Source: Sphaerolaimus hirsutus
Taxonomy: Eukaryota > Nematoda > Chromadorea > Monhysterida > Sphaerolaimidae
NCBI GenBank assembly: GCA_964036195.1
Contig: OZ038454.1
Location: 26,646,315-26,710,314, forward strand
Reading direction: 5' to 3'
DNA: 64,000 nucleotides
Part shown: piece by piece, positions 21,455 to 56,000 of the stretch
How the letters are laid out: every line of letters starts with the position of its first letter
How positions within the stretch are numbered: position 1 is the first letter of the stretch
Made by a program: the position numbers and the translations under genes
Notes under the pieces: generated by a model
Seen by the model: the letters and a program-made list of their open reading frames with translations, nothing else
The model's database searches: none
Told to the model about the DNA's origin: nothing

Positions 21455-21464
21455 AGTAGTAAGA

Positions 21465-21720
21465 GTAAGTATACATACATGGATAATATTTTCCAACTCT
21501 ATAGCACGTTTTTCTGTTTATCAAAAATTCTGGCGTAAAATCGCATTTTTATGTAAATATTTTTCTGTATGCACTTCGCTTTTTCAGCCGTCGTACCTCC
21601 GGCTGGCTTCGTGCATACAGAAAAATATTTACATAAAAATGCGATTTTACGCCAAAATTTTTGATAAACAGAAAAACGTGCTATAGAGTTGGAAAATATT
21701 ATCCATGTATGTATACTTAC
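21465..21720. repeat. Terminal hairpin of left arm
   Basis: Two 110-bp arms, 21465-21574 and 21611-21720, are reverse complements with one mismatch seen. The 36-base loop contains a smaller stem (AGCCG...CGGCT). This puts a palindrome of about 260 bp within about 10 bp of the outer boundary of the element. The layout looks like a T-shaped viral terminal repeat, though a foldback MITE inserted there would give the same pattern. Confidence 0.85.
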
Positions 21721-22570
21721 TACGCAACGCTCTACCTGTTTGTTTGCATTTCCTACGCGCGCTAAATTCCGAACAGAAAAGTTTTGTAGGGGGGCCCACT
21801 CTATCATTCCCGAACTTTTCCAAGTGTTTATCAGTATCGTGTTTGCATAGACTACACGCGCAGTTTTGTGTTCACTGCATTATTCATTTCACCTGGTAAA
21901 TTGCGAGAGAAATGTTTTTATGTGGGGGACGGCCTTTTCAATCCAGTGTTTGAGCGAGAAAATAGTTTTCACCTAGATAGCATCGCTCAAATGTTTGTTT
22001 GCATTTACTGTGCATGTAATTTTTGCTGCTTATTTACAGTTTTCTACCAGGAAAATTTTGCAGAAAAATTTCAAAGTAGTGAATATTCCAACTTTTATCA
22101 AAAGTGCCGTTGAGTTTGGTTCCTTTTTAGTGCGTGTGTAGTTCTTCCATTATTTAGCCTATTTTAAGTGAGCAGTGGGTTGAAAAATATCTGGGGGAGC
22201 AAGCATTCAAAAGCGCTTTTCGAACAGAGAATTTTGTGCTGGTTGTATAGCAAAAATGTTTTTTTGATGCGGTGAAAAGTTTATCAGCTTTTCCAGGCAA
22301 AGCGAATGTTTGTATTCCTAAAACACATTAGCTTCATTTCTGTCATTTAATTTGTCGTTTGCTCGCATGTTAGGTAATTGTCGTTAGAAAATTGATGCGT
22401 ACTAGATTTATATGTATTTTTTGATTTTGCTCTCGTTTCTAATAGAGTGACTATACATTCCATTTATCACATTGTTAAGCTCTCAAGATGTCATTTAAAT
22501 TACAGCCAAAAATTATTTAAATACAAGAATGCGTTTTATACAGAGATGAAAGTGCTTATGAAAACAATTA

Positions 22571-22906
22571 CCGTATTTTCCTCAAAATACCCCCTCGAAC
22601 TGCTCCTCTAAATGAACTTTTATAAATGAACACACACTAGTTTTCACACGAAATTTCTAAGCTCATAAATCCGCTTAGAACTCATTTGAGTTTTTTCCAC
22701 AATGAGTCATTTTAAATCTCCGTCAATTCTAGTTGTCAACTAGCCCATTGTAGAGAACTCAAATGCGTTCTAAGCGGATTTATGAGCTATCAAATTTTCA
22801 TGTGAAAATTATTGTGAGTAGGCAGATTTTTTCATTTTTCACTTTTTTTCTCAAAATTTCATTCTGAAAAGATAATTCCGCGCTCGGGTAATTCGAGGAA
22901 ATACGC
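22571..22906. mobile_element. MITE with CCGTATTTTCCTC ends (left arm; mirror at 50711-51046)
   Basis: Starts CCGTATTTTCCTCAAAATACCCCC and ends GGGTAATTCGAGGAAATACG. Elements with the same ends lie at about 31359-31577, 38972-39155, and as single ends in the satellite (55573-55592). Similar CCGTATTT ends are known from ISL2EU/PIF-like DNA transposons in animals; assignment is tentative. A GCATTTGAGTT-type hairpin (22657-22776) is nested in it. Confidence 0.6.
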
Positions 22907-23234
22907 TAAGTGCTAATTGTATTTGTCAACAAAATCACAAAATCCCAAAAAATGCCAATTCCCATTGTATCATTGCTTTGTATACCACCAATAATCTCGC
23001 ATTGTCAATGTGTAAAGTGCCAAAATCAGTATCCTGCCAAATAATGCCACAGAAAATCTCCCAGTGTCAAAAAATCATAGTCCCAAAAGTATCGAGACGG
23101 TCAGTGAAAATCTAGTAAAATGGGGAATTTTTTACGTTTTGTTCTGAGATTGAAGTGACTTTCAAGTGAGAATAAGTCCAGGTTTTTTACCACATTAGTG
23201 AATCATTTGAGTGCGATTCAGGTGCATCTGAAGA

Positions 23235-23412
23235 CAGTCCCAAGCTCTGTAAAGTGTAAAGTAAAGTGTTAAATGTAAAGACAAATGCAAAGACAATCAT
23301 AACAAAAAAAGAAAAGATCTTATTATTGAACTTTTCATTTGAATCGATACTTTACTTTGCATTTGATTTTACATTTTACACTTTACTTTAGACTTTATAG
23401 GGCTTGGGATTG
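23235..23412. mobile_element. MITE at 3' end of arm gene, left copy
   Basis: Mirror of 50205-50382. Same relation to the arm-gene stop codon. Confidence 0.75.
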
Positions 23413-26400
23413 GCACCTGACGTATCGATGCAGGATTGATAAGTATGCAATTTTTCTTGTTCCACAGCAACATTCACATCAAATTTTTCCACAATCAGTT
23501 TTGTATGCTGCAGATTAGCTCTGGGGACCCTCACACGGGATCCAAAATTACACTCAGCACAAATTAGTACCGGATAATCCAAAACCTTAGCAACATAAAA
23601 ATCAAATATCAAAATCGAAATAATTTATTTGTCATTATGTGTTGTCATTTAATTTGAGACTTGATGTATATTTTATAAAGCTTTTGGATTATCACCAGTT
23701 TGTGTTCGCGGATGCTTTCTTGGCAGACACCATGGCACCTAAAAAATTGAGTAAAAATAAGTATTTTTTGATTTTTTTTACCTCAGAAAATTAATAAAAA
23801 TGTATTTACCTCATGTTTATAGCTGTACCATCTGTGGATGGGTATTCTGTCATGAAAGCTTGCTGAAAAACTGTTGTGGTGCACTGTTCACCATTTTCCA
23901 GACAAGTTTCACGATTTGGTAAACACGCATGCATGTGTGATTTTCGTCCATTTGGGGCATCATCTGAGTTGTGTGAAAAAAATCTTTTTCTAGTTCTATA
24001 TTATGAAAACAAAAATATTGCACAAAAAAATGAATTATCAAACCATGCATGATGATTTCATCTTGAAATTTTTTGAATGTTTCTTTAACAGCGCACACAT
24101 CCCCGACTACAAGTTCCCGGTTTCGGGTTTGCCCCAGCGCAGTTTCCGAATGTGACTAAAAAAATGTTTTAAAATTACACAACATAATTTGTTATAATTT
24201 TAAAACCATGAAAAAAATGTTTTTTACCACAACTCTTGCTTGCCAGCATTTTTCCGCATTTGCCTCCCCATGTAAATTGCAGTGGGAACAAAAGTGGTTC
24301 TTTGTAACGCCAGGTATGCCCAGCTCGCGGTGTAATGTTTGTTTCAGATGTTTGTGTGTTCTTGCAATATAGGGCTCCACTGTTTTTTGTATTGTTTTCG
24401 CATTCACTTTCTTTGAACGTTTCGTCAGATTTTCATCATTCCCATGTGTTTTCGCCAAAATAATTGGAGGGTTTACGAACTCCGCATCTACAAGGAATAC
24501 AAAAAAACATTTTGTTGGGAGTGCACTTAGAGGAAACTTTGATTACTGTATTCCCGGGAAATACACCTTGAATTATAACAGCCCCACAAAAAACTACAAA
24601 AACTTTTTCAAAAAACACCCCCCAAAAAAAGGAAGCTGTGTATTTCAAGGAAATACAGTAATTTCAAAAATTACGAGCTGTCATTTCCCTATCATCTCGG
24701 CAGGCTGCATCGCTTTCACAAAATGGATTTTGCGCCAGATCCATTTCACCACGTGCAGTTTTATGAAAGCGACAATTTTTCACTTTGCAGGTTTTGTGCC
24801 CTTTCACTGTAAGCCCAGGGGCCGCTGTAAGTGCCGGCGTAATTTGCCTGAGGATTTTCATTCCATACTCTCCAGCCAGAGAATCTAGAAATTTGTGGAA
24901 TTTTTTTGTTTTTTATATCAGAAAAGTTCAAAATATTTTGATCTTACATGTTACATTTGGACTAAGTGACTCATTCAACAGTGGGTAAATTTCAGGCAAA
25001 TTGCGTATAGCAGCAGCTGGGGGTCCAAATGGTTGTGATGAAGTTATTGGTGCTCCACACAAATCTGACCCCAAAGCTATGGTTTTTTTTGGGTCCACAG
25101 ATTTGCTGGGACTTTCAACAGATTTGTCAGAATTTCCAGGGTTGGTAGAGATGTCAGAGTTTTGGGGGGTATCAATATGGGGTGTGGGGTTGACTGTTGT
25201 TGTTTTCGAGGGTGTTGGGTGTTCTCCAGTTGAAGATGCCACAGTGACCTGAAAAATATAGGGGAAATATTTTTTTTATTAATATCGTATAGTACAAAAA
25301 ACATTCCTTTGCATTGCTTGATGATGCTGTACCCCCAGACTTGTCTTGTGCTAAAGACTTCAGATAAAGTGCGCGCGTTAAAGCAGGGGACAGTTCAGAA
25401 CTTTCAATCTGAAAAATAATTATTTATGTGATTCTCGTATTTTGTATTCATTAAAAAAGTGTAACACCTCATAATCCTCAGAAGTGTCCCCATTCTGAAT
25501 GTTAAAATCGGCTAGAGTGAACCGCTGAACAGTCCCATCGTCATTTCGCTTACTGAAAAATGATTTGTTTTGGAGTTAAGGTGGTTATTTTAGGGTAAAT
25601 TATATTAGATTACCGTAAATGGTAATCGGACCTCAGTGAAGGTGACCTTGAAGTGCCAGATTTTGTGCCAGAAGTGGTAGATTTCCGAGATTTTGAGCCA
25701 GAAGTCCTAGAGTTCTGAGATTTTTTGGATCCTGAGCGGCTTTTTCTTTGCCTTTTTTTGGCAGTTTTCAAAACTTTTGATGGTGGCAAAGAGGTCACAG
25801 TAACATTTTTATCAGTCTCAATGATGTGTCTGAACCCATGTCGCTCGGAAGAACTTGAACTTAACGCATTATTCTGTTCTTCCACCCATTCAGACGTCCG
25901 TGATTGTATTTCAGTGGGGGTTGGTCCTGTTGAATGACTCCGTTTTTCAGCTTGCCCTACAGTCACAACGGTTTCATCTTGCCCTACAAATATAAGATAG
26001 CACAAGGATACATTTTCTAATTAAAATTATTTTTTGCAGTACAGACCTGGCGTTTGCACAGATTTTCTCGCTTTATAAATTGGTGTTCCCCGTCCAACAC
26101 CTCCAAGTAGATGGGGTAAAGTGCCCCGCCCTACATTTGTACGAAACGGGTAGCTCGAAACATTTATCCGTTGCCAAACTGTTGGGGAATCAGGCCGTGG
26201 TGCATTTGATTTTTGAAGAGAGCGCACAGGTTGATTTGGAATTTTGAACACATTGAAGGGAGCTGTGTGAGAATATTTGAAAATTGCAGAGAAATGCGAA
26301 ATTGTTTGAATGTAAGCTCTCAGAGTGATGCAAAAGTCATCATGAACATATGACCATCAGTATTAGTTTATCATCATTGAGCTTATATATTCTTACATAT

Positions 26401-26586
26401 CCTAACTTATAATGTACGTACCCGCATCAGGTTTCTTTCCGGGATTGTTTGAATCACTTTCGAGAGTCAATTTTTCCTCCTTTATTTCTGTATAAAGAGG
26501 ATATACTTATTTTCGTGTTTAAACATTTTTCAAAAATGCCCCCCTGTAAATTCACCTGTGTCAGTGTTGGTGACATTGTCAGCCAT
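23388..26586 (-). CDS. Arm gene, left copy: basic Ser-rich, Cys/His-containing protein
   Basis: Left-arm mirror of the gene at 47031-50229, with the same exon structure on the minus strand (position = 73617 minus the right-arm coordinate). The encoded frames are identical. See the right-arm entry for domains. Because the promoter region is inside the arm too, both copies could be expressed. They are oriented with start codons toward the core and 3' ends toward the termini. Confidence 0.7.
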
Positions 26587-27540
26587 TGTTACAAACAGTC
26601 ATGTAGGGACCCAATTTCATTATTCATTATTTACCATGTAAAAAGAGAAATGCCATGTACAATGTTGTTGATCACTTAATATGGAACAAATACCCGCAAT
26701 GGTTGTGAGCTCTCAGTACACTCTGATATTCTGCTCTCCACCACCCACTAGCCAGAATTTTTTTACAGAGATGATACTGTAGGCACACAACAATTAGGAG
26801 TAATGTGCTCCATATTAAGTAGTTCATACAACATTGTACATGACTTTTCCTTTCTACATGGTAAATAATGAAGAATGAAATTGGCCTGCGAGGCGCCCTG
26901 CATTTAAAAATTGCTCAAATATATTACATATGAACATTTTAAACTTCAGAATTTTTTATGCATGATTGCCTTCAGATCCCACCAACTATCTTCACATTTG
27001 AAAAATCCTACCTACTTAATCAATCTTAACATCAGATTGAAGTACTTGGACATAGGCATCTCATCATTAGGCAATGTTGAATTGAAACTAGATACTCCTG
27101 TCTTCAGTGAATGCGTTCTAGTCACAACAATGCAACTAACCAAACACAGTTCAGACACAGGATTTTTTTAGTCATCATTAGACAGAAATATTTTTTTACT
27201 CAGTAAAAATCCCCACCCTGGAAAAAACTGGCCTGAAAATATCACTCTCACAGAAAAACCAGCGCGAGTTACCAATCTGTTCACCAACGGCCAATGGGGG
27301 GGGGGGGCGTCGGTGCTGTGTGGGGTTAGGAGAGTTTGTTAATTACATTGCTTTTGTAGCGTAGTTTATGATAGTTAATTTTGGGTCTACATTTAGCCTT
27401 CAGAGGTACACCAGACCTTAATTTTGTCACCACACGCAATGGTAAGACACCATTTGGGAATTTAGACATCATTAGGCAACTTAATGTTTTGATACAAAAC
27501 CCCAAAACCAGAGAAGTTGCCCACACTGTAAAATCTGACC

Positions 27541-30071: not shown

Positions 30072-31715
30072 ATGCTATTTATTATTCCATTTATTTTTGC
30101 CTGCCCGCAAATTGCAGAAACTTGTGAAAAATTTGCGAAATATTGCTGTTTAGAGATGTCTACAGGTAATTTGGGGTAATAGACATCATTCCAATTTTCA
30201 TTTCTCTAGAGTTTACTTTTACGTGGAAAATTACCAAGGAACGTTCATAAAACAAAAAAATGCATCTCACAGTCCAATTTTTGATGTTGCTACCCTGCTC
30301 AGTAGTTGACAATTGTGTCTCAAGTCTTCTGTGTCAACTCAATTTTGGGTTCAAACAGTAAACAGATCTGCATCCATATTTTTACATAAAAATATTTCAC
30401 GCAAGTAGATACGGAATTAGAATATTTATGAGTTGACTAAAAATTTACAAGTTGACTGAACATGGTCGGCAACTCGTAAATATTCTGAGATTTCTGTTAT
30501 TGCTTTTGAGATGAATTTCAAAGGGGGAAACTTTACTTTACCAAGTTCAGTCAACTTGTAAATTTTTAGTCAACTCATAAATATTCTAATTCCGTATGTA
30601 CTTGCGTGAAATATTTTTTGTAAAAATATGGATGCAGATCCATTTACTGTTTGAAGCCAAAATTGGGTTGACATACTGTAGATGATATACATGACTGAAG
30701 ACTTTTATCATTGACCTCGTTAACTTTTTCTAGTGGCTGAAGGCTGGTGCGACGAACGTCAAGTGACATTTCCGGATGGCTACACTCCAATCCCCTCACA
30801 TTTGGAAATTGTGGATTTCCATGGGTGTATATCTCTCAATTGCACCCAAATAAATCAAAGATACCCACTGCTTATGCATTTCAATTTTGTGAAAAGTGGC
30901 TGTGAGTGTGTTGCAAAGTGTAATGGAAAGATTGATTTGACCAATAATGTTTTTTGCGGTGTGTGGGGGAAATTCTTAATTCTTGTCAACTTACGCTGTG
31001 AACTCAAAATATCACTTGAACAATATTTTAAGAGTGTATTTACCCTATACGTTGGTATACGTCTTTTTCGAGTAAATGTAAATAGACCTATAACTTGTTC
31101 ATGTTTGTAAAAGTTTTTTACACGAAATTCCTCATTTTCCTCGCATAGAAAGTCCTCCGTCAACTCCGAGTCCAGAAATTAACGGCAGCAATACCGGGTG
31201 GCTAATAATGTTTACTGGTGTTGGGTTTGTGTGTAATTGTCTTGTCAATGGATTCCTGTTTTTGGCATACAAATGGTGGGTTAATTTGTGAAATTTCATG
31301 GCGGATGTGGTTTCTTTATGGAGTTATGCAGTGAAATTTAATCATTTTTCTAGAAGTAGCGTAATTTCCTCGAAATACCCCCTCCCCCACCCCTGAATTT
31401 TTTTTGTAGTCCGGAAAATGTATAACAGACGTTTAAAACACTTACTGTGTTAGGTGTAAACATCGTTTTTACCATTTGCATCCTCATATACTGGAAATTG
31501 TTGCAAATTTCACGTTTTTCTCTCAAAATTTCACTCTGAAAAAATAAACCCCAGGGGTAATTCGAGGAAATACGGTATGTCATATTTATTTTTATAGGTG
31601 GAAAAAACGCGCTGCATCCCAACAATTTGCACCGGAACAAATGCCACCAGATGCAGAAATGAATATTGTTGACAACCCTGAATTTCAGCAAGATTTGGAA
31701 GAAGTAAATTGTTAG
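30072..31715 (+). CDS. Small cysteine-rich type I membrane protein (~180 aa)
   Basis: Four exons with consistent phases: 30072-30165, 30734-30958, 31149-31275, 31598-31715. The first encodes a signal peptide (MLFIIPFIFACPQIA). The second gives a compact ectodomain with eight cysteines, including C-I-S-L-N-C and C-E-C-V-A-K-C groups and an N-linked site (NCT). The third has another site (NGS/NTG region) and a membrane span (WLIMFTGVGFVCNCLVNGFL). The fourth is a short Lys/Arg-led then acidic tail. The topology is that of a viral or cell-surface glycoprotein. No family recognised. It is followed at about 490 bp by the larger membrane-protein gene, and the pair may form the surface proteins of one particle (inference). 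Intron 1 holds a palindrome; intron 3 holds a CCGTATTT-type MITE. Confidence 0.7.
30333..30675. repeat. Large palindrome in intron of small membrane-protein gene
   Basis: Arms of about 120 bp (30333-30460 and 30545-30675) with a loop of about 85 bp. They contain the word AAATTTTTAGTCAACT / AGTTGACTAAAAATTT that recurs in the palindromes at 32461-33097 and 34000-35240. Confidence 0.8.
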
Positions 31716-32200
31716 TTTATAATTCGCTAAATAATATACCCCTCCTACACCGCTTTTTTATATATTTTACGGATGTAAACACTACCAAAACTTGACGTTC
31801 TATTGGAGGTGCTATTTTATTGAATATATGCTGTTTTAAAACAAGAATATGGTACATAAGTTCTAAAAAGTAGAAAAAAATAAACCTTTCACTCAAATAT
31901 AGGTTAACTGCTCGCCGCATAAATGTTATCTCAAATGTAGCCAATATTTCAGAAAGCTCGATGCAATTACTATCCAGTTATTTCAGATAGCTGCAAGTTT
32001 TGGAAAGTAGTGGAAATATTTTCTGTGATTTTTTCTGTTTTTAGAAGTCCGTAGTAACCTCGCTTCCCATAAGCAACTGTCATTTTCTTTCCTTTTTTTG
32101 GCTCTTTTAGTTCCCCCCAGCAATAGAAAAAACACATCATTTGGAAGTTCACAGCAAATTGTGATTTTTGCTCACTCATAGGAAAAACTTTTTTGCAAAG

Positions 32201-38465: not shown

Positions 38466-38617
38466 AGTAAAGTGTGAAATGTTGTGGTAAAATGTCACAT
38501 AATTTGAAAACATCAATAAAGTGACATGGCAGTTTTCAAATAATGTGATATTCTACCATAATATTTCACAGGTTACTTTACACTTTACAGGGTTTGGGAA
38601 TGCTCAGGTGGTCTACT
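38437..38617. mobile_element. MITE providing the stop codon of the spike-like gene
   Basis: Ends CATTCACAGACCCTGTAAAGTGTAAAG and CTTTACACTTTACAGGGTTTGGGAATG are inverted, with CCAGGTGT/CTCAGGTG-like direct flanks (imperfect 8-9 bp). The left end encodes the last residues (RPCKV) and stop. Confidence 0.75.
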
Positions 38618-39900
38618 TATGGCTGACATTTCCCAGATAACACCAGTGAGGAATAATAATGTCTTTGGCCCCCTGAGCTCTACTCCCAGTCTGTTATATT
38701 TTTTTATGATAAACATTTGAAAAAGCTCCAAAAATTTCAAAAAAAAGTCATTTGTATAAAAAATTGCAGTGGTTCACTTCGCGCGCCAGGAAGCTATGGT
38801 GACATTTCACGCGTCCGAGGAATGATTTTGTTCGAGGGAATTCCTGAGGGATGTTATTTTTTGTATTTTTTATGATTTTGGATGTTAGGAGAGATGATAA
38901 AAATACTGAAGTTTTGAAAAGTATACTAAATTACTTTTTAGCCACAAAATACTTTTTTTCGAAAAAATATATCGTATTTCCTCAAAATACCCCCTCAAAA
39001 ATAGACACCGAGTATTTATAAATCTGTTAAAATACTCCCAAATTTAATGTATTGAGAATGAATCTCATTTTGCATAAATTACAGCCACTGATTTAGTACT
39101 GGGAATTTTTTGAAAAAATTTCAGTGAAAAAAATAAATTCGAGGAAATACGATATATTTTTGGAAAAAAAGTATTTTGTGGCTAAAAAGTAATTTAGTAT
39201 ACTTTTCAAAACTTAAGTATTTTTATTATCTCTGCTACTCACCAGGAAATATCCGAGATAGATTTTTGATGATCATGAGTATTTATGAGTATTTCGATAT
39301 ATATTCAAAATATTTCTTCTGAGTATTTATGAGTTGATGTTCAATTGTGGCATAATAAATATGTTATGATACATTTATGACAAAAAAAGTTGCATGGCTT
39401 TACTGCAAAAGTCTTTACTTTTACTCCAAAATACGTAAAAAACGTGGGACTAAAAAGTATTTACTTTTACTCGAGTATATATTTTTTTCATTTGGTGGAC
39501 TTTTTGCTGGTAAAACCCAGAGTGATTACTAATAATATTTACCCAGAGTAGTGATAAAATCATTGGCACCCTAGGTAGCACCAAACTTTGAACTGTAAAC
39601 ATGAAATTATCACAAGGCAGCACTACAGTGTTCTACAAACATTGCTTAATTAGAAATGTAAATATGATAATGGTAGAAAATGTCACTATGTGGTACAGAT
39701 TTGAAAAAAGCATTGATAACTTAAACAAATGTCACTTCCCCACTGGTACAGTTACATTGCTTTATTAAAAATGTAAATATGATTATGGTAGAAAATGTCA
39801 CTGTGTGGTAGAGATTTGAAAAAAGCATTGATAACTTAAACAAATGTCATTTCCCCACTGGTACAGTTCCTTGTCCTTATCATAACTTTCAAGATATATA
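38618..39900. repeat. Gene-free spacer with palindrome and direct repeats
   Basis: About 38915-39225 is an inverted repeat whose arms (GTATACTAAATTACTTTTTAGCCACAAAATAC type) enclose a CCGTATTT-like MITE. About 39643-39755 and 39757-39868 are direct copies of a 113-bp unit (ATGTAAATATGATAATGGTAGAAAATGTCACT). A TATA-like AAGATATATAAG at about 39890 may belong to the next gene's promoter. Confidence 0.7.
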
Positions 39901-39919
39901 AGTGGATGGTTTCTTGAGA

Positions 39920-40020
39920 CTCCTCACTTCACTGCTCTGCTCACTTCACTGCCCTGGTCTCTTCATTGCTCTGCTCACTTCACCGCTCTGGTCACTTCAC
40001 TGCTCTGCTCACATCACTAT
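39920..40020. repeat. CACTTCACTGCTCTGCT minisatellite
   Basis: About six degenerate copies of CTCACTTCACTGCTCTG lie in the apparent 5' leader directly before the ATG at 40036. Confidence 0.7.
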
Positions 40021-40035
40021 TCTAGAAGTGTCAGA

Positions 40036-41743
40036 ATGGACAAAACTCCAAAGTTTCAAAAGAAAGTTAAACGCCCACTGTTCCCGCTGCATGAGGAGGA
40101 CGAAACTGACCATTCCGATCAACCTGATGAAGAGGATGAGGTCGAACCACCACGCCTGCCCAAGAAACCTGTGAAACCTGTACGGGCTGTTCCGAAAGTC
40201 AAGCGGATGAATGCTGTTCAGTATGAAACTTCACCAGGTAGAGGTTTGAAAGGTTGCTTTNNNNNNNNNNNNNNNNNNNNNNNNNNNNNNNNNNNNNNNN
40301 NNNNNNNNNNNNNNNNNNNNNNNNNNNNNNNNNNNNNNNNNNNNNNNNNNNNNNNNNNNNNNNNNNNNNNNNNNNNNNNNNNNNNNNNNNNNNNNNNNNN
40401 NNNNNNNNNNNNNNNNNNNNNNNNNNNNNNNNNNNNNNNNNNNNNNNNNNNNNNNNNNNNTAGTTACTGTTTGGGGTGAATGATGAACCTTTGCCAAAAA
40501 ACAGAACTTAAAATGTTCCTTGACCAACGGTCACTTTTTTCATCTATTGGTCATTTGTCCGGTGGTCAGTCTGTCTAATGATTACTCCCTATAAATAGCT
40601 AGAAATAGGTTCCAGTTTCTTTACAAACCAGTATAAAGTGCAAGTGACCAGTGTAAAGTGCAAATGCAAGTGTTCACATAAATTTGAAGCTTTTTACATT
40701 CTGTGTGTGTTTTGAACTAGATCACTATAGGACTTAATCGTAACATAATCATTATTTACATATTCTAAGTAGAATACTTTAAAATGTTTGTTGCTGATTG
40801 TAGTATGAGTGACCAATGGTCAAAGATAATAAATAAATAAATAATTAATGCCCTTCCATCTAATCTTTGCAGAATCGGTGGATCAAGAGCTCGTTAAGCA
40901 GGAGACACAGTATGCAGCGGACTTTCAACAAAAGCAAGAACAGAAAAAACGGCAAGCTGTCGACAATGTCATCGGTTCAAAGATCCATTGGATTTCGAAA
41001 AGTTGCCGTTCAGAAGGATTCAGGTATGTGAGGGTTATATTAAGCTTATGGCTAGGTAATTTCATTTCTCCTGTGTGTAAATATGAGTTTGCAAATTTAA
41101 AGAAATTTGCAAGCCAATCTTCCTCAATAAATTTTTTATGGAACTTATGTATCCATAAAAAAGCACTGTAATTTTCACATTACAGAATTCTCTTCAAGGA
41201 CTCAATGCCGTTTTTGCAGGTGACATTCCCAAACTCTGTAAACATGAACTGTTGAATATCATGTTTTTTTTAAAAATTCAAGATTGTGAAATTTACAAAG
41301 TTCGATCCGAGGTATCTCGAATTTTTAGTCATTTGATATTTGATCTTTTCGTATTAACAGAGATGGGAATGTCTGTTTAGATCGGTTCATTTGAATTCTG
41401 TCGAATTTTTTCGATATATAAGCCTGTGAGGAATCAGGGTTGGCAAAATGGACCAAACATGCAATTCAAGTCGGTAGCAGAAATTCCACTTGGAGACAGC
41501 AAAATTTTTGACATTTTTGCTGGTAAATTTCGAGGTGTTTTTGAAGCTGCTATAGCTGAAGCAGAGGTAGGTTGACTTGTGACTTACACTATCACAAAAA
41601 AATTGTTTTTGTGAATGTAAGGCACTTGCCTCCTACAGGAAAAGTTTGCCAATCACACGGCGAGGCTCGTAGAACAACAGGAGAAATATCAACAATCCCG
41701 TTTTGGAGGGAATTATGGTGGAAAGTTCAACAATTATGCTTAA
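40036..41743 (+). CDS. Small basic protein, possible nucleic-acid-binding core component (~225 aa)
   Basis: Five in-phase exons: 40036-40237, 40873-41023, 41186-41219, 41381-41566, 41639-41743. The N-terminus is charged (KKVKRPLF, then EEDETDHSDQPDEEDEVEP, then Pro/Lys-rich). The middle is helical and Gln/Lys-rich. The C-terminus is Gly/aromatic/basic (RFGGNYGGKFNNYA), as in RNA- or DNA-binding tails. No family recognised; a role in packaging or as a polymerase cofactor is conjecture. The 200-base assembly gap lies in its first intron, so an extra small exon there cannot be excluded. Flanks contain five copies of TGACCNNNGGTCA. Confidence 0.62.
40261..40460. other. Assembly gap, exactly 200 N
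   Basis: All bases are N. The round length suggests a placeholder rather than a measured gap, so distances across it are unreliable. Confidence 0.98.
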
Positions 41744-42118
41744 ACACCTCACTCACATTAAAAGTGACCACTGGTCATTAATGTCTAAGATTCTCTTTAT
41801 AAGTATTTATGGTAGTATATATGTATTTATGGGTAAACATTATGTGTTTTTTTAATAGGGGTATGCTCTATTTGTGATTTTCAAGTAACTATACATGATT
41901 ACTATGTACTGAGCATTAGAGAATAAGTGAATAAGGGAGAAATCAAGGTGTAATTCTCAAGGGTTGATTCAATTGCAAAAAAATTTTCATGTGTAGTGAC
42001 CGTCGGTCACTAGTGAATAAGGTAGCATTCATGGGTCCGTTACTTAATATATTCAAGTTGCATTCAAGGGGGGTCATTTATCAATTGTTCAGTAGTAAAT
42101 AAAGGTGACCGTCGGTCA
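40521..42118. promoter_or_regulatory. Five TGACCNNNGGTCA palindromes around the small basic-protein gene
   Basis: Copies at 40521-40533, 40810-40822, 41765-41777, 41997-42009 and 42106-42118, with spacer AAC, AAT, ACT, GTC and GTC. The last two sit in a direct duplication of about 105 bp (41997-42100 and 42106-42220). GGTCA is the nuclear-receptor half-site, here everted with 3-bp spacing. Whether it binds anything is unknown. Confidence 0.5.
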
Positions 42119-42459
42119 CTAGTGAATACGGCTGCATTCAAGAATCCATTAGTCAATATGATTAAGCGGCATTTTCATTCAAGGGGTTCATTTACCGATT
42201 GTTCAGTAGTAAATAAAGCTAATAAGTACTTTTCTGGAAGTGAGGATAATATTTTGTTGTTATACTTATCGCTTAGTAGTTGCAGCTGTTTATAATAATA
42301 TATTTGGAATGATAAAATGATTTATAAATGAAATGATCCATTTTTTATGTCAAGTTGAATGAGTTGAGACTCTATCTCATTGCTATTTGAGATATATCTT
42401 GAAATTATTAATAAATTTTTCAATCATTATTTAAAATGACACTTTCAGAATAAGGTAAT

Positions 42460-45400
42460 ATGGTGAATTATTCTTGCGAAATTTGCGGTGCATCCTTTCT
42501 TACAACATACATGATTGGACGTCATATGGAACAGTCACATCAATTGAAGAAAACCAATATCAGTGTTGATAAATCCGATACCAATAATTGGATTTATAAA
42601 AGTGTTAGTGTGTTGATTTTTTATTGTAAATGTGCAAAAATTTTGTAAAAATTTTGCAAATTTTTTTTGCAGTGTGCAAAAAAATCATATTCAAATGTTC
42701 CATATCTTGACTTCAACATTGTGTCACCCCTTCAGAAACTGAATGACACTATGAATGGGAATAAAGGAAAAGCCGATGTTGTAGCAATGATAGATGAGGT
42801 AGTACAACGACAAGTGAATAGTGAAAATTTGAATGGAGAAATTTTAGAAAAACTCACTGAACTAAGCTTAAGGATGGAGAGAGTCATTCATCAAGTATGT
42901 GAATTATTTTAAGGTTCATATAAGAGCTTTGTTATATATTGGATCATTTTTTAGGTTGATCAACTTTATTCTGCTAGCCCAAATATGCCTGGACCATCTT
43001 CTGAAAATCAAACTGGACATCCGCCTGTTGAAAAACGCTCACGCGCACCAAAACGACCCAAGAAAGCACCTGAACCAGTACAGGAGTTGGATAGTGATGA
43101 AGAACGTATGTTTCCACAATTATCTTCTGAATTAGCCGATAAGTATGGTTTTGGTCACCTTCCACCTCCCATTTTTGCTAAACAGAATGCCGTCATTAAT
43201 TCTGACCCAGAATTAAGCTTTTTTCAACAAATGTATCAATATCAATATAAGCCAAGAATTGTAATATATCAAAAAGGGCGTAAAATTGAATATCGTTTTC
43301 CTATTTTTGGTGTGTACAATGACAATCTCAGGCAATTGCTGATTCAACAGCTAAAGGCGTTTCTTGGTGCATACCCGAAAATATTCCGGCTCAAATGTCA
43401 AATTGGCTTTTTATTAGTCTCGCGTGAAAATCCAGAAATAAATACTCGTTTTTTCCGTCAATCATTCAATACTCAATGTTATGATGGTATAGTAAATGGC
43501 AGTTTATATCTCAAATTTAATAAAAGCATTTCTGAATTATGTAGCGGTAATTGTGAATCATACTGTACCTTTATTAATGATATGTTTTCATCCGGTGCTG
43601 CTTATAAATCACTTCCATTTTCTATTTCCTATATCGGAATTGTTATCTAAATGTTTATCAATACATGTTGATATACTTTTTTTCAGAATCAACATGCTTT
43701 GGTGGAACACGTTCTTATATGAGACGAATTAAAAAAATGAATATAAATACAAAATTTTTGGAATGCACTATTATTCTGGCACTTGCTGAGTTCACAAAGC
43801 AGAATATAAATAAAAATGAATTGTCAGAATTGGTGTCAGAAATTGAATCAGCTACTGCACATGAATCATTGTATAAAGCTACTATGTTATTTAATACACC
43901 CATAAAAGTCTATCATTCATGTTTGAATGAAAAAATCTTTTATGAATCAAATATGTTGCAATCAAAATGGCTAAACCAGACACAAGCACTATTGTTATAT
44001 CAGAAAAACGGTCAAATTCGGCTCATTGTAAATTTGCATTTATTCCGGAAAACATTCCAATGTACTAATTGTAGCTTGATTATTTCTAACCGGCATTCAT
44101 ATTGGAGACATAAAAAATATAATTGTCTAGGAACCGCAATGCGTCAAAAACGGTTTGTCATTCTGAATCATATTTATATGAAATGATTTTCTGATCTAAT
44201 TTAAGTAGACCTTTTGAAAAACATCTCTCAATCTAATTTGTACAGATTGAAAGCAAATCAAAAGGTGATTTCAATGGATGACAATGGGCTCCCTAGGCTA
44301 GTAATTTTGGAATACGAATCTGGTCGCTGGAATGAACAGCCAACCCTAATTGATCGACTAGAGGCACTGTTAGATAAAAAACCACTTTACCATATAGAAA
44401 ATGAACACATTGCTATAAATGATTTGCCAGCTGAATTGATTGGCTTGTTAAACTTAAACACCTTTCTAACATATGACTTAGAAACAACAGCTGTCAAATC
44501 AAATCTTCCAGTTGACACCACAAACTATTCGTTTATTGGTCGCCATGTACCGTTAATTATTACTGTTACTCGCGCAGACACAAATGAAACTAGAATATGG
44601 GAAGCTTCTAGTTTTTCCAATACCCAAATTGTAGAGTCATTTGTGTTATACTGTTTAGAAGTAGCACTGGAATTTACACAGAAAAAGCATGCATATTTAG
44701 CTGAATTTTTCCATTTCATTACAAGTAAGAAGCAATTTACACAGAATGGTTTTGAAATGCAAAAATTGGTGATTTTAGAAAAGAAATTATCTCAGCACAT
44801 AAACACTACACCAATTTTTGGATACAATAGTGCTAGATTTGACCTACCTATATTGTTAAATTCAAAGCTTATTGAATATTTGTATTTGCACGATTTAGAT
44901 AGTCATGGTAAGCAGAAAATGCCTACTGCTATTAAAAAGGGTGAAAAGTATATAGTCTTGAAGTCCCCTCATCTAAATTTTTTAGACGCAATCGTGTTTG
45001 AGGGGGCTAGCCCATCATTAAGTGACTCTTTACAACAAACTTTTCCCAATGATACTTCATTGCATAAAAAATTTTTACCATATCAAGTTTTAAAAAAAGG
45101 TATTGCCTGTTTTTCTTACGGAATTCCGGAATATGAAAGTTTTTTTGATGAAATGGCTTATACGAACACGTTAGATATTGAATACAATGATTATATGAAA
45201 GCGCGACATAAATACAAAATGTCAAAAAATGAAGCGCTAGAATACTTGAACTTGAAAAAAATTCCTCAAGTTGGCAGAGAAAAGCATGCTAAAATAGTAG
45301 AAGCATGGAAAGAAAAAGGATTTACTTGCTTTAGAGACATATTAATTGATTACTGCATTAGTGATGTTAAGCCGCTGATTCGTTTTTTACAAACCCGCAT

Positions 45401-46279
45401 ACTTTCTTATTATATTATTGCACAACAGTATTTACATGGTTTTGTAACAATTTCTAGTTTTGCATTTCATATTACTTATAATAGTATGCAAGAGAATCCA
45501 GCTCAATTATTTTATATTCCCGGTGAGCATTTGACAAACTTGATTCGTGCTAATTTGTTAGGTGGTATGACATTTATTTGTACCAAATTTGTTGAATTAG
45601 GTGTAAGCAAAATTCGTCCATACGACTATGAAAACCCGAATGTAGCAAAGGCAATTTTGGGTTATGATGCTAATAGTCAGGTGCTTTTCTAAAGTTCTTT
45701 CTTATTATACAATTTTTTAAAAAACCTCTGTTAACTTATCTATTATTACTTTTTAGTATCCATCGGTGATGTGTCAGAAACAATTCACTGGTCCGCCAAT
45801 ATATCGGTGTTCAGAGGATAACTTTAAAGCTGATTTCATTCAGAGGCATAAAATTTCACCACTTCAATATGTCGAATATGTGAATCGCACAGAAAATTGT
45901 GAATACATGCATTCACTATGTAATAAGGGAGAAGTTTCAGTATTTTTAGAGAGTATACAGGAAGTATATAGACTAGATGGGTTTGTTCATTAGCAAAATA
46001 TACCTATTGAAAAATATGATACATTTTGGGAAAAATATTCATATTTTTCTTTACAGATATGGCGTCCGCCAGCAAAATGGTCGAAATGTTCCTGTTGCTG
46101 TTGAATTTTTTGAATGTAATGGTTCCCATGGTTTTTGTGGCAAAAACTGCTGTCTGTTCAAAAAACAGGCTAAAAATGATAAACATGTTTGGATAAATGG
46201 TTTATCACACCGTGAAAACAAAAGGCTAAATGTAGACCCAAAATTAACTATCATAAACTACGCTACAAAAGCAATGTAA
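42460..46279 (+). CDS. Family-B DNA polymerase (protein-primed type), truncated after motif A
   Basis: Seven in-phase exons: 42460-42603, 42673-42894, 42955-43594, 43687-44152, 44246-45680, 45757-45980, 46057-46279. Exon 1 encodes a C2H2 finger (CEICGASF..H..H). A second finger-like group, CTNCSLIISNRHSYWRHKKYNC in arrangement, lies near 44060. The 3'-5' exonuclease follows: Exo I YDLETTA (about 44475), Exo II FGYNSARFDLP (about 44818), Exo III YCISDVKPLIRF (about 45353). Polymerase motif A is split by an intron: YDANSQ/YPSVM. Next comes a Cys-rich block with VAVEFFECNGSHGFCG, similar to the EFxGCxWHGC nuclease-like insert of Polinton polymerases, though that insert normally precedes motif A. 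The gene then enters the right inverted arm at 46222 and stops. Motif B (K/NxxYG) and motif C (DTD) are missing, so this copy cannot be a working polymerase as it stands. The N-terminal about 500 residues might include a terminal-protein or primase-like part (unproven). Confidence 0.88.
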
Positions 46280-47030
46280 TTAACAAACTCTCCTAACCCC
46301 ACACAGCACCGACGCCCCCCCATTGGCCGTTGGTGAACAGATTGGTAACTCGCGCTGGTTTTTCTGTGAGAGTGATATTTTCAGGCCAGTTTTTTCCAGG
46401 GTGGGGATTTTTACTGAGTAAAAAAATATTCCTGTCTAATGATGACTAAAAAAATCCTGTGTCTGAACTGTGTTTGGTTAGTTGCATTGTTGTGACTAGA
46501 ACGCATTCACTGAAGACAGGAGTATCTAGTTTCAATTCAACATTGCCTAATGATGAGATGCCTATGTCCAAGTACTTCAATCTGATGTTAAGATTGATTA
46601 AGTAGGTAGGATTTTTCAAATGTGAAGATAGTTGGTGGGATCTGAAGGCAATCATGCATAAAAAATTCTGAAGTTTAAAATGTTCATATGTAATATATTT
46701 GAGCAATTTTTAAATGCAGGGCGCCTCGCAGGCCAATTTCATTCTTCATTATTTACCATGTAGAAAGGAAAAGTCATGTACAATGTTGTATGAACTACTT
46801 AATATGGAGCACATTACTCCTAATTGTTGTGTGCCTACAGTATCATCTCTGTAAAAAAATTCTGGCTAGTGGGTGGTGGAGAGCAGAATATCAGAGTGTA
46901 CTGAGAGCTCACAACCATTGCGGGTATTTGTTCCATATTAAGTGATCAACAACATTGTACATGGCATTTCTCTTTTTACATGGTAAATAATGAATAATGA
47001 AATTGGGTCCCTACATGACTGTTTGTAACA

Positions 47031-50000
47031 ATGGCTGACAATGTCACCAACACTGACACAGGTGAATTTACAGGGGGGCATTTTTGAAAAATGTTTAAAC
47101 ACGAAAATAAGTATATCCTCTTTATACAGAAATAAAGGAGGAAAAATTGACTCTCGAAAGTGATTCAAACAATCCCGGAAAGAAACCTGATGCGGGTACG
47201 TACATTATAAGTTAGGATATGTAAGAATATATAAGCTCAATGATGATAAACTAATACTGATGGTCATATGTTCATGATGACTTTTGCATCACTCTGAGAG
47301 CTTACATTCAAACAATTTCGCATTTCTCTGCAATTTTCAAATATTCTCACACAGCTCCCTTCAATGTGTTCAAAATTCCAAATCAACCTGTGCGCTCTCT
47401 TCAAAAATCAAATGCACCACGGCCTGATTCCCCAACAGTTTGGCAACGGATAAATGTTTCGAGCTACCCGTTTCGTACAAATGTAGGGCGGGGCACTTTA
47501 CCCCATCTACTTGGAGGTGTTGGACGGGGAACACCAATTTATAAAGCGAGAAAATCTGTGCAAACGCCAGGTCTGTACTGCAAAAAATAATTTTAATTAG
47601 AAAATGTATCCTTGTGCTATCTTATATTTGTAGGGCAAGATGAAACCGTTGTGACTGTAGGGCAAGCTGAAAAACGGAGTCATTCAACAGGACCAACCCC
47701 CACTGAAATACAATCACGGACGTCTGAATGGGTGGAAGAACAGAATAATGCGTTAAGTTCAAGTTCTTCCGAGCGACATGGGTTCAGACACATCATTGAG
47801 ACTGATAAAAATGTTACTGTGACCTCTTTGCCACCATCAAAAGTTTTGAAAACTGCCAAAAAAAGGCAAAGAAAAAGCCGCTCAGGATCCAAAAAATCTC
47901 AGAACTCTAGGACTTCTGGCTCAAAATCTCGGAAATCTACCACTTCTGGCACAAAATCTGGCACTTCAAGGTCACCTTCACTGAGGTCCGATTACCATTT
48001 ACGGTAATCTAATATAATTTACCCTAAAATAACCACCTTAACTCCAAAACAAATCATTTTTCAGTAAGCGAAATGACGATGGGACTGTTCAGCGGTTCAC
48101 TCTAGCCGATTTTAACATTCAGAATGGGGACACTTCTGAGGATTATGAGGTGTTACACTTTTTTAATGAATACAAAATACGAGAATCACATAAATAATTA
48201 TTTTTCAGATTGAAAGTTCTGAACTGTCCCCTGCTTTAACGCGCGCACTTTATCTGAAGTCTTTAGCACAAGACAAGTCTGGGGGTACAGCATCATCAAG
48301 CAATGCAAAGGAATGTTTTTTGTACTATACGATATTAATAAAAAAAATATTTCCCCTATATTTTTCAGGTCACTGTGGCATCTTCAACTGGAGAACACCC
48401 AACACCCTCGAAAACAACAACAGTCAACCCCACACCCCATATTGATACCCCCCAAAACTCTGACATCTCTACCAACCCTGGAAATTCTGACAAATCTGTT
48501 GAAAGTCCCAGCAAATCTGTGGACCCAAAAAAAACCATAGCTTTGGGGTCAGATTTGTGTGGAGCACCAATAACTTCATCACAACCATTTGGACCCCCAG
48601 CTGCTGCTATACGCAATTTGCCTGAAATTTACCCACTGTTGAATGAGTCACTTAGTCCAAATGTAACATGTAAGATCAAAATATTTTGAACTTTTCTGAT
48701 ATAAAAAACAAAAAAATTCCACAAATTTCTAGATTCTCTGGCTGGAGAGTATGGAATGAAAATCCTCAGGCAAATTACGCCGGCACTTACAGCGGCCCCT
48801 GGGCTTACAGTGAAAGGGCACAAAACCTGCAAAGTGAAAAATTGTCGCTTTCATAAAACTGCACGTGGTGAAATGGATCTGGCGCAAAATCCATTTTGTG
48901 AAAGCGATGCAGCCTGCCGAGATGATAGGGAAATGACAGCTCGTAATTTTTGAAATTACTGTATTTCCTTGAAATACACAGCTTCCTTTTTTTGGGGGGT
49001 GTTTTTTGAAAAAGTTTTTGTAGTTTTTTGTGGGGCTGTTATAATTCAAGGTGTATTTCCCGGGAATACAGTAATCAAAGTTTCCTCTAAGTGCACTCCC
49101 AACAAAATGTTTTTTTGTATTCCTTGTAGATGCGGAGTTCGTAAACCCTCCAATTATTTTGGCGAAAACACATGGGAATGATGAAAATCTGACGAAACGT
49201 TCAAAGAAAGTGAATGCGAAAACAATACAAAAAACAGTGGAGCCCTATATTGCAAGAACACACAAACATCTGAAACAAACATTACACCGCGAGCTGGGCA
49301 TACCTGGCGTTACAAAGAACCACTTTTGTTCCCACTGCAATTTACATGGGGAGGCAAATGCGGAAAAATGCTGGCAAGCAAGAGTTGTGGTAAAAAACAT
49401 TTTTTTCATGGTTTTAAAATTATAACAAATTATGTTGTGTAATTTTAAAACATTTTTTTAGTCACATTCGGAAACTGCGCTGGGGCAAACCCGAAACCGG
49501 GAACTTGTAGTCGGGGATGTGTGCGCTGTTAAAGAAACATTCAAAAAATTTCAAGATGAAATCATCATGCATGGTTTGATAATTCATTTTTTTGTGCAAT
49601 ATTTTTGTTTTCATAATATAGAACTAGAAAAAGATTTTTTTCACACAACTCAGATGATGCCCCAAATGGACGAAAATCACACATGCATGCGTGTTTACCA
49701 AATCGTGAAACTTGTCTGGAAAATGGTGAACAGTGCACCACAACAGTTTTTCAGCAAGCTTTCATGACAGAATACCCATCCACAGATGGTACAGCTATAA
49801 ACATGAGGTAAATACATTTTTATTAATTTTCTGAGGTAAAAAAAATCAAAAAATACTTATTTTTACTCAATTTTTTAGGTGCCATGGTGTCTGCCAAGAA
49901 AGCATCCGCGAACACAAACTGGTGATAATCCAAAAGCTTTATAAAATATACATCAAGTCTCAAATTAAATGACAACACATAATGACAAATAAATTATTTC

Positions 50001-50229
50001 GATTTTGATATTTGATTTTTATGTTGCTAAGGTTTTGGATTATCCGGTACTAATTTGTGCTGAGTGTAATTTTGGATCCCGTGTGAGGGTCCCCAGAGCT
50101 AATCTGCAGCATACAAAACTGATTGTGGAAAAATTTGATGTGAATGTTGCTGTGGAACAAGAAAAATTGCATACTTATCAATCCTGCATCGATACGTCAG
50201 GTGCCAATCCCAAGCCCTATAAAGTCTAA
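47031..50229 (+). CDS. Arm gene, right copy: basic Ser-rich, Cys/His-containing protein (~715 aa, 13 exons)
   Basis: Exons with matching phases: 47031-47061, 47130-47195, 47355-47570, 47634-48003, 48065-48149, 48209-~48311, 48369-48669, 48733-48942, 49130-49389, 49462-49573, 49654-49807, 49879-49921, 50032-50229. The donor of exon 6 is the one join I could not settle. An alternative end is the stop at about 49971. The N-terminal half is disordered, with a Lys/Ser/Arg-rich block (KKRQRKSRSGSKKSQNSR). The C-terminal half has paired Cys/His groups: CKVKNCRFH, HFCSHCNLH, CHGVC and CAEC. These suggest metal binding and nucleic-acid contact, but no known family was recognised. The stop codon lies within the end of a MITE (50205-50382). 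Function unknown. Confidence 0.7.
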
Positions 50230-50382
50230 AGTAAAGTGTAAAATGTAAAATCAAATGCAAAGTAAAGTATCGATTCAAATGAAAAGTTCAATAATAAGAT
50301 CTTTTCTTTTTTTGTTATGATTGTCTTTGCATTTGTCTTTACATTTAACACTTTACTTTACACTTTACAGAGCTTGGGACTG
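50205..50382. mobile_element. MITE (CAATCCCAAGC ends) at 3' end of arm gene
   Basis: Ends CAATCCCAAGCCCTATAAAG and CTGTAAAG..-type CTTTACAGAGCTTGGGACTG are inverted. The left end encodes the last codons (NPKPYKV) and stop of the arm gene. The mirror copy is at 23235-23412. The same family ends the large membrane-protein gene at 38465. Confidence 0.75.
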
Positions 50383-50710
50383 TCTTCAGATGCACCTGAA
50401 TCGCACTCAAATGATTCACTAATGTGGTAAAAAACCTGGACTTATTCTCACTTGAAAGTCACTTCAATCTCAGAACAAAACGTAAAAAATTCCCCATTTT
50501 ACTAGATTTTCACTGACCGTCTCGATACTTTTGGGACTATGATTTTTTGACACTGGGAGATTTTCTGTGGCATTATTTGGCAGGATACTGATTTTGGCAC
50601 TTTACACATTGACAATGCGAGATTATTGGTGGTATACAAAGCAATGATACAATGGGAATTGGCATTTTTTGGGATTTTGTGATTTTGTTGACAAATACAA
50701 TTAGCACTTA

Positions 50711-51046
50711 GCGTATTTCCTCGAATTACCCGAGCGCGGAATTATCTTTTCAGAATGAAATTTTGAGAAAAAAAGTGAAAAATGAAAAAATCTGCCTACT
50801 CACAATAATTTTCACATGAAAATTTGATAGCTCATAAATCCGCTTAGAACGCATTTGAGTTCTCTACAATGGGCTAGTTGACAACTAGAATTGACGGAGA
50901 TTTAAAATGACTCATTGTGGAAAAAACTCAAATGAGTTCTAAGCGGATTTATGAGCTTAGAAATTTCGTGTGAAAACTAGTGTGTGTTCATTTATAAAAG
51001 TTCATTTAGAGGAGCAGTTCGAGGGGGTATTTTGAGGAAAATACGG
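50711..51046. mobile_element. MITE with CCGTATTTTCCTC ends (right arm)
   Basis: Mirror image of the left-arm copy, including the nested hairpin at 50841-50960. Its presence at the same position in both arms shows that the arms were copied or homogenised after this insertion. Confidence 0.6.
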
Positions 51047-51896
51047 TAATTGTTTTCATAAGCACTTTCATCTCTGTATAAAACGCATTCTTGTATTTAA
51101 ATAATTTTTGGCTGTAATTTAAATGACATCTTGAGAGCTTAACAATGTGATAAATGGAATGTATAGTCACTCTATTAGAAACGAGAGCAAAATCAAAAAA
51201 TACATATAAATCTAGTACGCATCAATTTTCTAACGACAATTACCTAACATGCGAGCAAACGACAAATTAAATGACAGAAATGAAGCTAATGTGTTTTAGG
51301 AATACAAACATTCGCTTTGCCTGGAAAAGCTGATAAACTTTTCACCGCATCAAAAAAACATTTTTGCTATACAACCAGCACAAAATTCTCTGTTCGAAAA
51401 GCGCTTTTGAATGCTTGCTCCCCCAGATATTTTTCAACCCACTGCTCACTTAAAATAGGCTAAATAATGGAAGAACTACACACGCACTAAAAAGGAACCA
51501 AACTCAACGGCACTTTTGATAAAAGTTGGAATATTCACTACTTTGAAATTTTTCTGCAAAATTTTCCTGGTAGAAAACTGTAAATAAGCAGCAAAAATTA
51601 CATGCACAGTAAATGCAAACAAACATTTGAGCGATGCTATCTAGGTGAAAACTATTTTCTCGCTCAAACACTGGATTGAAAAGGCCGTCCCCCACATAAA
51701 AACATTTCTCTCGCAATTTACCAGGTGAAATGAATAATGCAGTGAACACAAAACTGCGCGTGTAGTCTATGCAAACACGATACTGATAAACACTTGGAAA
51801 AGTTCGGGAATGATAGAGTGGGCCCCCCTACAAAACTTTTCTGTTCGGAATTTAGCGCGCGTAGGAAATGCAAACAAACAGGTAGAGCGTTGCGTA

Positions 51897-52152
51897 GTAA
51901 GTATACATACATGGATAATATTTTCCAACTCTATAGCACGTTTTTCTGTTTATCAAAAATTTTGGCGTAAAATCGCATTTTTATGTAAATATTTTTCTGT
52001 ATGCACGAAGCCAGCCGGAGGTACGACGGCTGAAAAAGCGAAGTGCATACAGAAAAATATTTACATAAAAATGCGATTTTACGCCAGAATTTTTGATAAA
52101 CAGAAAAACGTGCTATAGAGTTGGAAAATATTATCCATGTATGTATACTTAC
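51897..52152. repeat. Terminal hairpin of right arm
   Basis: Mirror copy of the left terminal hairpin: arms 51897-52006 and 52043-52152, loop 52007-52042. It ends 10 bp from the outer boundary at 52162. Confidence 0.85.
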
Positions 52153-52162
52153 TCTTACTACT

Positions 52163-55937: not shown

Positions 55938-56000
55938 CGGATGACACTGTATTTAGGTACTTTTGTCCATTGGGCGATTGTCACTACTTACGACACTATG

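What the first reader, a model, noticed from the sequence alone, without database searches (positions are those of the whole stretch)
21455..52162. A 30.7-kb spliced, virus-like DNA element with a family-B polymerase and two surface-type membrane proteins
Seen: near-identical 5.94-kb inverted arms, Exo I-III and motif A of a family-B polymerase, a small signal-peptide/TM protein, a ~700-residue coiled-coil secretory membrane protein, a basic protein, and a further gene in the arms. Known: Polinton/Maverick elements and adintoviruses combine protein-primed PolB with virion genes, and some nematode Mavericks carry a fusion glycoprotein. Inferred: this could be a divergent enveloped relative of that group that uses many introns. 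The missing integrase, protease, ATPase and capsid make it either a very divergent lineage or a partial copy.
Basis: partly seen in the sequence, partly recalled or inferred. Interest (0 to 1): 0.92.

Follow-up and report, generated by a model that had tools for sequence, protein, structure and literature searches.

The report
Rearranged copy of a divergent Maverick
This stretch is a rearranged, incomplete copy of a strongly diverged virus-like DNA element (a Maverick/Polinton) whose genes are split by introns; other copies in the same genome carry the integrase and the likely capsid-side genes that this stretch lacks, and two membrane-protein genes travel with the family.

Summary
The 5.94-kb inverted arms exist (1 mismatch, one 5-base gap), yet they are not native ends: another copy in the same 348-Mb genome has terminal repeats of about 268 bp. 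The right end of this very insertion lies outside the window (window coordinate about 110,051) and shares the 5-bp target duplication TTCAG. From 46222 on, the native right part is replaced by an inverted second copy of the left arm (rearrangement or assembly join). Other copies supply the rest of the family-B polymerase (Pfam E 1.6e-9), an rve-type integrase and, on weaker evidence, protease, ATPase, penton and capsid genes. I read it as a divergent Polinton/Maverick family with at least 35 polymerase loci, recently copied (1 mismatch in 4,078 bp between two copies). Splicing is supported: an intron splits polymerase motif A in five copies and is absent in a sixth. Both membrane-protein genes recur upstream of the polymerase (23 of 35 loci have one or both) and evolve under purifying selection; a surface or entry role is likely but unproven. 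Profile tests of the capsid-side genes were negative or inconclusive, and it is not established that introns in Mavericks are new.

The parts
16533..21454 (-). retroelement pol ORF into which the element inserted (Integrase_H2C2, DUF5641 and a viral fusion glycoprotein domain by Pfam; the name BEL/Pao is recalled)
   Evidence: flank comparison
21450..21454 (.). left copy of the 5-bp target duplication TTCAG; the right copy follows the right terminus at C6:26756365, outside the window
21455..21722 (.). native left terminal inverted repeat, starts AGTAGT; itself nearly palindromic
21455..27400 (+). left arm of the element, in its native position
23418..24864 (-). multi-exon gene of unknown function in the left arm; five coding blocks conserved in C135, one of them also in C13b, none found in C13a
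30072..31718 (+). gene S: small Cys-rich protein, signal-peptide-like start (by eye), hydrophobic segment near 31223-31282, short tail
32201..38702 (+). gene G: long coiled-coil protein with N-x-S/T sites and a conserved exon with a hydrophobic segment at about 38052-38249; signal-peptide-like start exon and the piece 35319-35582 assigned by eye
37292..37518 (+). intron of gene G that is almost wholly a fold-back (palindromic) sequence
   Evidence: folded as 37292-37516
40036..41701 (+). gene with a basic N-terminal part; blocks 40881-41024 and 41381-41569 conserved; contains the 200-N gap 40261-40460
42454..46222 (+). family-B polymerase region (C2H2-finger-like piece below Pfam cutoff, N-terminal region, exonuclease, motif A), cut off at 46222; that 42454-43650 belongs to the same gene is inferred
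45681..45756 (+). 76-nt GT-AG intron inside polymerase motif A; absent in the copy on C3 (L029)
46222..52162 (-). inverted second copy of the left arm, in place of the native right part of the element

Best explanation
The window holds the left part (about 25 kb) of one copy of a divergent, intron-bearing Polinton/Maverick family, integrated into a BEL/Pao-type retroelement. Shown: ends of about 268 bp beginning AGTAGT, a 5-bp target duplication, a family-B polymerase, an rve-type integrase in sister copies, many copies, introns, purifying selection. Inferred: it replicates by protein priming (jumping back on the AGT repeat), integrates by its DDE integrase, packages DNA with its ATPase into capsids matured by its cysteine protease, and G and S are virion surface or entry glycoproteins. 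The 5.94-kb arms are a later rearrangement of this copy, or an assembly join: an inverted copy of its own left arm joined at 46222, followed by about 54 kb of other DNA before the element's right end resumes outside the window.
For: Ends AGTAGT//ACTACT equal the commonest end motif of vertebrate Mavericks (PMC8097293, section 7). Shared target duplication in 3 of the 3 copies whose two ends were clearly paired (a fourth pairing, on C2, was unclear, and the C6 copy at 16.3 Mb lacks its right end). PolB: Pfam E 1.6e-9 above cutoff, PHROG DNA polymerase 3e-9, two database relatives at 6.7e-8 and 4.4e-7, of which the first is a clear DNA_pol_B_2 protein and the second has no such Pfam hit. Integrase: rve 5.4e-5, below cutoff; IS481 model 1e-8, below its cutoff; retroviral integrase structures 0.0048. 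Converging gene modules. dN/dS about 0.07-0.37 in 15 of 15 comparisons. Polymerase copies from 100 down to about 43% alike. Right end of the insertion with TTCAG.
Against: Penton, ATPase and major-capsid pieces matched nothing convincing in the searches made; the protease profile reached only E 0.013, and IMG/VR held no relative for any of the six queries sent. The terminal-protein part of the polymerase could not be tested: both structure models were poor. 15 of 35 polymerase loci show no S within 30 kb and 19 of 35 no G within 20 kb upstream; the searches score only the best candidates. No transcript data. The window copy's target duplication is 5 bp, where Mavericks are described with 6.
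Confidence: 0.87

Rival explanations
1. The 30.7-kb unit is a true element with 5.94-kb terminal inverted repeats, for example a fold-back form made during protein-primed replication and integrated as such.
For: The identity stops exactly at both AGTAGT termini, and the arms are more alike (1 mismatch) than the left arm is to two other copies (97.1 and 97.8%).
Against: The flanks at 21454 and 52163 share no target duplication; the left flank's TTCAG recurs at the right end at C6:26756365, and the two flanks continue one reading frame, read by eye. The C16 copy has about 268-bp repeats.
Confidence: 0.06
2. The inverted arm and the 54 kb behind it are an assembly error that joins two loci or haplotypes. 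This does not exclude the best explanation; it concerns only the origin of the arms.
For: A 200-N scaffold gap lies 5.8 kb before the join; the C6 copy at 16.3 Mb stops at L012:2868 and this insertion resumes at L012:2869, which fits one break or one misjoin.
Against: At 46222 the two sides share about 1 base, not a long repeat; the arm ends exactly at a terminus with a flank of its own.
Confidence: 0.4
3. Genes S and G are captured host genes with no part in the element's cycle.
For: No relatives identified for the pieces tested in Pfam; they were not sent to the large protein set. Some S and G loci have no polymerase match nearby.
Against: S and/or G lie upstream on the same strand at 23 of 35 polymerase loci, including copies where they are only about 32-40% identical, with purifying selection in the pieces tested.
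Confidence: 0.08
4. A cytoplasmic or mitochondrial linear-plasmid type polymerase element without virion genes.
For: Pfam PF03175 is named for organellar and viral polymerases; no capsid gene was confirmed by profile.
Against: rve-type integrase, target duplications and a conserved module with a protease-like and an ATPase-like protein in the same copies.
Confidence: 0.03

Closest known systems
Polinton/Maverick elements (vertebrate Mavericks as described in PMC8097293)
   Same: AGTAGT//ACTACT ends, terminal repeats of a few hundred bp, short target duplication, family-B polymerase, rve-type integrase, likely protease, ATPase, penton and capsid genes, two converging gene modules with accessory genes at the side
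   Different: about 31.5 kb (C16, with a 2-kb deletion) to 33.9 kb (C302) instead of 12.7-24.6 kb; introns (none in intact vertebrate elements); ATPase-like gene on the strand of the capsid module; so diverged that only one of three searches of 5.8 billion proteins gave relatives (two of the three queries were polymerase pieces, and that tool's length rule limits pieces)
Nematode Mavericks with a putative fusogen (Widen et al., seen only through one passage of the meeting report PMC10680173)
   Same: likely nematode host (TTAGGC repeats), Maverick core, a candidate surface membrane protein
   Different: homology of G to that fusogen could not be tested; whether those elements have introns is unknown to me, because the papers are not held
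Mid-size animal viruses with predicted coiled-coil capsid-surface proteins (PMC11071296, passages)
   Same: a coiled-coil protein as possible surface protein in small DNA viruses
   Different: G has a signal-peptide-like start and a conserved hydrophobic exon, and its gene has introns

Membership tests
Polinton/Maverick | family-B DNA polymerase | tested here: met
   DNA_pol_B_2 E 1.6e-9, above cutoff, in L013; 5.1e-5, below cutoff, in the window piece; PHROG 3e-9
Polinton/Maverick | protein-primed type (terminal-protein and vOTU domains before the exonuclease, PMC11071308) | tested here: inconclusive
   single-sequence models of mean pLDDT 38.1 and 34.6 only; AGTAGT ends fit but do not prove it
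Polinton/Maverick | retroviral-type (rve) integrase | tested here: met
   in L012, not in the window: rve 5.4e-5, IS481 model 1e-8, both below their cutoffs; retroviral integrase chains 0.0048. Two Asp motifs in L012 and a candidate Glu exon in L020 read by eye. Met on combined, individually weak evidence
Polinton/Maverick | adenovirus/Ulp1-type cysteine protease | tested here: inconclusive
   His, Asp, Gln, Cys invariant in 5 of 5 copies (their role is recalled); best profile E 0.013 to the deubiquitinase Dub2, 0.35 to ULP1; no Pfam, PHROG or NCBIfam hit
Polinton/Maverick | packaging ATPase | tested here: inconclusive
   P-loop-like GGSSSxKTT invariant in 5 of 5 copies apart from x (role recalled); no hit
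Polinton/Maverick | major capsid protein, double jelly roll | tested here: inconclusive
   multi-exon gene in the expected place; no convincing hit; the assignment rests on position and recalled resemblance
Polinton/Maverick | minor capsid (penton) protein | tested here: inconclusive
   conserved 318-residue protein beside the integrase, 41-85% identical to the first of 5 copies; no convincing hit
Polinton/Maverick | terminal inverted repeats of tens to about 1,500 bp | tested here: met
   about 268 bp in C16 and between the window's left end and L030
Polinton/Maverick | 6-bp target duplication | tested here: inconclusive
   5 bp shared in 3 of 3 clearly paired copies, 6 bp possible in 2 of them (C16, C302), not in the window copy
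Polinton/Maverick | end motif such as (AGT)2//(ACT)2 | tested here: met
   motif described in PMC8097293
Nematode Maverick with fusogen | fusogen homologous to the described one | not testable with these tools
   no reference sequence at hand; a nematode polinton paper was not held; no Pfam hit above cutoff for the G pieces tested

The most novel reading that the evidence does not exclude
A lineage of enveloped animal Mavericks whose genes, polymerase and capsid-side genes included, can only be expressed through the spliceosome, which gains and loses introns (some made of fold-back repeats), and which carries a two-protein surface module (S plus the coiled-coil glycoprotein G) unrelated in sequence to known fusion proteins, with copies young enough that transmission or transposition may still go on.
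Probability: 0.3. Interest if true: 0.78.

Novelty: new variant of a known kind. Interest (0 to 1): 0.55.

Why it matters
Intact vertebrate Mavericks are described as intronless (PMC8097293, section 14), so a recently copied family with introns in polymerase, integrase and capsid-side genes bears on whether such elements express their genes as host-nuclear genes and how they gain introns. The conserved S and G genes give a testable candidate for how animal Mavericks move between cells or hosts. It also shows how a long inverted arm in one copy can be mistaken for a native terminus.

Tried and rejected
Rejected: native 5.94-kb terminal repeats (no target duplication, about 268-bp repeats in another copy); 'missing' integrase and capsid-side genes as a lineage trait (they are in other copies, the capsid-side ones on weaker evidence); S and G as host genes, as far as this one genome can tell.

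Led nowhere: three searches of the 5.8-billion-protein set (none; two distant polymerases); six IMG/VR scans none; PHROGs for seven window pieces nothing usable; single-sequence structure models too poor for a fold search, so none was run; SL1 RNA search, no match here and none in the control genomes, so uninformative. The N-x-S/T conservation test was significant against C13b (6 of 7 vs 7 of 27, p 0.007) but not against C135 (7 of 11 vs 17 of 34, p 0.33). Never answered: the search for uninterrupted copies of the flanking retroelement and for genome copies of the fold-back intron, so the empty site rests on the two flanks alone.

Literature: nine searches of the held library (titles and abstract starts only) listed no paper on introns in Maverick genes, but a main nematode paper and the adintovirus paper are not held and Widen et al. 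was seen only in a report, so novelty of the introns is not established.
Full report
What was claimed.

Arms and ends. The arms are 21455-27400 and 46222-52162. Over the first 5,940 bp they differ by 1 mismatch and one 5-base gap, while the left arm is 97.1% and 97.8% like the two other copies compared (the C16 comparison covers the first 5,036 bp). In the copy on C16 only about 268 bp are repeated at both ends. A genome search with the outer 600 bp found a 268-bp right-end repeat at C6:26756098-26756365, window coordinate about 110,051. That end (L030) is followed by TTCAG, and TTCAG precedes the left terminus at 21455; read by eye on the minus strand, the two flanks continue one frame of the retroelement's pol. 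So this is one insertion, and the 30.7-kb unit has no target duplication of its own. Two more paired copies share 5 bp, 6 if one base is counted with the flank (C16, C302); a pairing on C2 was unclear.

What replaced the right side. At 46222 the sequence leaves that of the C6 copy at 16.3 Mb and continues as the inverted left arm, with about 1 base in common at the join. The native right part resumes about 54 kb after the arm, at L030:5777, exactly where the C6 copy at 16.3 Mb stops (L012:2868/2869). Rearrangement and misassembly both fit. The 200-N gap at 40261 has no missing bases relative to two other copies.

Gene content. In the window, plus strand: S (about 30072-31718), G (about 32201-38702), a gene with a basic start (about 40036-41701), the polymerase region (42454-46222, cut off). 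Minus strand: a gene in the left arm (23418-24864). In other copies the right part holds, converging on the polymerase: integrase, a 318-residue protein taken as penton, the multi-exon gene taken as major capsid protein, a 145-residue protease-like protein, a 275-residue ATPase-like protein and a protein of unknown function of roughly 165-185 residues. The polymerase is supported by profiles, the integrase by several individually weak ones; the protease by four invariant residues and a marginal profile; the ATPase by a P-loop-like motif; penton and capsid by position and recalled resemblance only. The right end of this insertion (L030:5777-9365) is 99.9% identical to L012:2869-6456, the part with the integrase, penton and part of the capsid gene.

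Splicing. Motif A is split by a GT-AG intron of 76 nt (45681-45756) in the window and by introns of other sequence at the same site in C135, C13a and C13b; C16 is identical to the window there; the copy on C3 has no intron there. The C3 copy also reads through a capsid-gene site that is split in L025 and L012. One intron of G (37292-37518) is nearly all fold-back (folding z -32.7); an S intron (z -23.8) and another G stretch (z -8.6) are also self-complementary, while three short polymerase stretches are not strongly so (z 1.0, 1.6, -2.9); the bounds folded were set by eye and one polymerase stretch is uncertain. At the same G site C135 has a different sequence that also folds back by eye.

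Activity and selection. The polymerase piece has 35 loci in the genome by my count, a lower bound because only best candidates are scored. Window and C16 differ at 1 of 4,078 positions in 42055-46132, so their common source is recent. The 27-40 kb part is uneven, 67-99% alike to C16 by 400-bp piece and largely absent from the C6 copy between about 29.7 and 36.6 kb. Nei-Gojobori dN/dS between diverged copies is about 0.07-0.22 for core genes and 0.16-0.37 for S and G pieces, 15 of 15 comparisons, with synonymous sites near saturation.

Surface genes. The hydrophobic G exon has 33 matches and the S piece 34 in the genome, which I reduced to 26 and 32 loci. Of 35 polymerase loci, 16 have G within 20 kb and 20 have S within 30 kb upstream on the same strand, 13 both, so 23 have either; 12 have neither. 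I read the G exon in 16 of the 26 loci, some of them near-duplicates: an N-x-S site with a changing middle residue is kept in all 15 readable ones, and L036 has a broken frame. The conservation test of such sites over the G blocks was significant against only one of two copies, and cysteines are kept in 16 of 18 and 11 of 12. The site follows the hydrophobic segment, which would fit a fusion-peptide-like segment in the ectodomain better than a membrane anchor, but this is inference.

Host. The four-fold TTAGGC repeat occurs 17,386 times (overlapping matches) and its reversed control 0 times. From general knowledge this points to a nematode; the SL1 search was uninformative.

Comparison with what is known. 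The end motif, repeat length and converging modules match vertebrate Mavericks (PMC8097293: passages, section 7, part 1 of 2 of section 14). The gene list that defines the family is taken from PMC11071308 and PMC4028283 (passages), general size from PMC6431247 (passages), the nematode fusogen from PMC10680173 (one passage). PMC11071296 and PMC12220804 were read in passages; the term search in PMC10328495 found nothing. Against membership: several core genes remain unconfirmed by profile, the target duplication of the window copy is 5 bp, and the terminal-protein part of the polymerase is untested.

Verdict. A divergent, intron-bearing member of the Polinton/Maverick kind; the window shows a rearranged part of one copy.

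Noticed in passing
window 16533-21548: Retroelement pol ORF (minus strand, BEL/Pao by recall) that also carries a Monjiviricetes viral fusion glycoprotein domain (Pfam E 3.8e-11, above cutoff): a retroelement with a negative-strand-virus-like glycoprotein.
   Followed up: partly
window 37292-37518 and 30166-30734; L023:1225-1440: Introns of S and G that are largely fold-back repeats; at one G site two copies have different fold-back sequences. Possible intron gain from inverted-repeat elements.
   Followed up: partly
L013:4181 and L030:5777: The C6 copy at 16.3 Mb ends at the very base where the window insertion's right part resumes 10 Mb away on the same contig: a shared break or misjoin.
   Followed up: partly
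window 52163-64000: Repeated units of about 2.6 kb (three copies of a 120-residue frame, recurring CACTCACACGCAAA arrays) with one tRNA-Arg at 54453-54524.
   Followed up: no
window 21464-21721: The terminal repeat is itself about 90% self-complementary.
   Followed up: no
G000 C14, C15:2.9 Mb, C9:25.9 Mb, C16:16.0 Mb, C740: Loci with S and G matches but no polymerase match nearby: more distant relatives or decayed copies.
   Followed up: no
G000 C2:31598440-31684962: Two ends, a G exon and a polymerase that may be one copy, with G and polymerase about 55 kb apart, so it may also be interrupted by a large insert.
   Followed up: no
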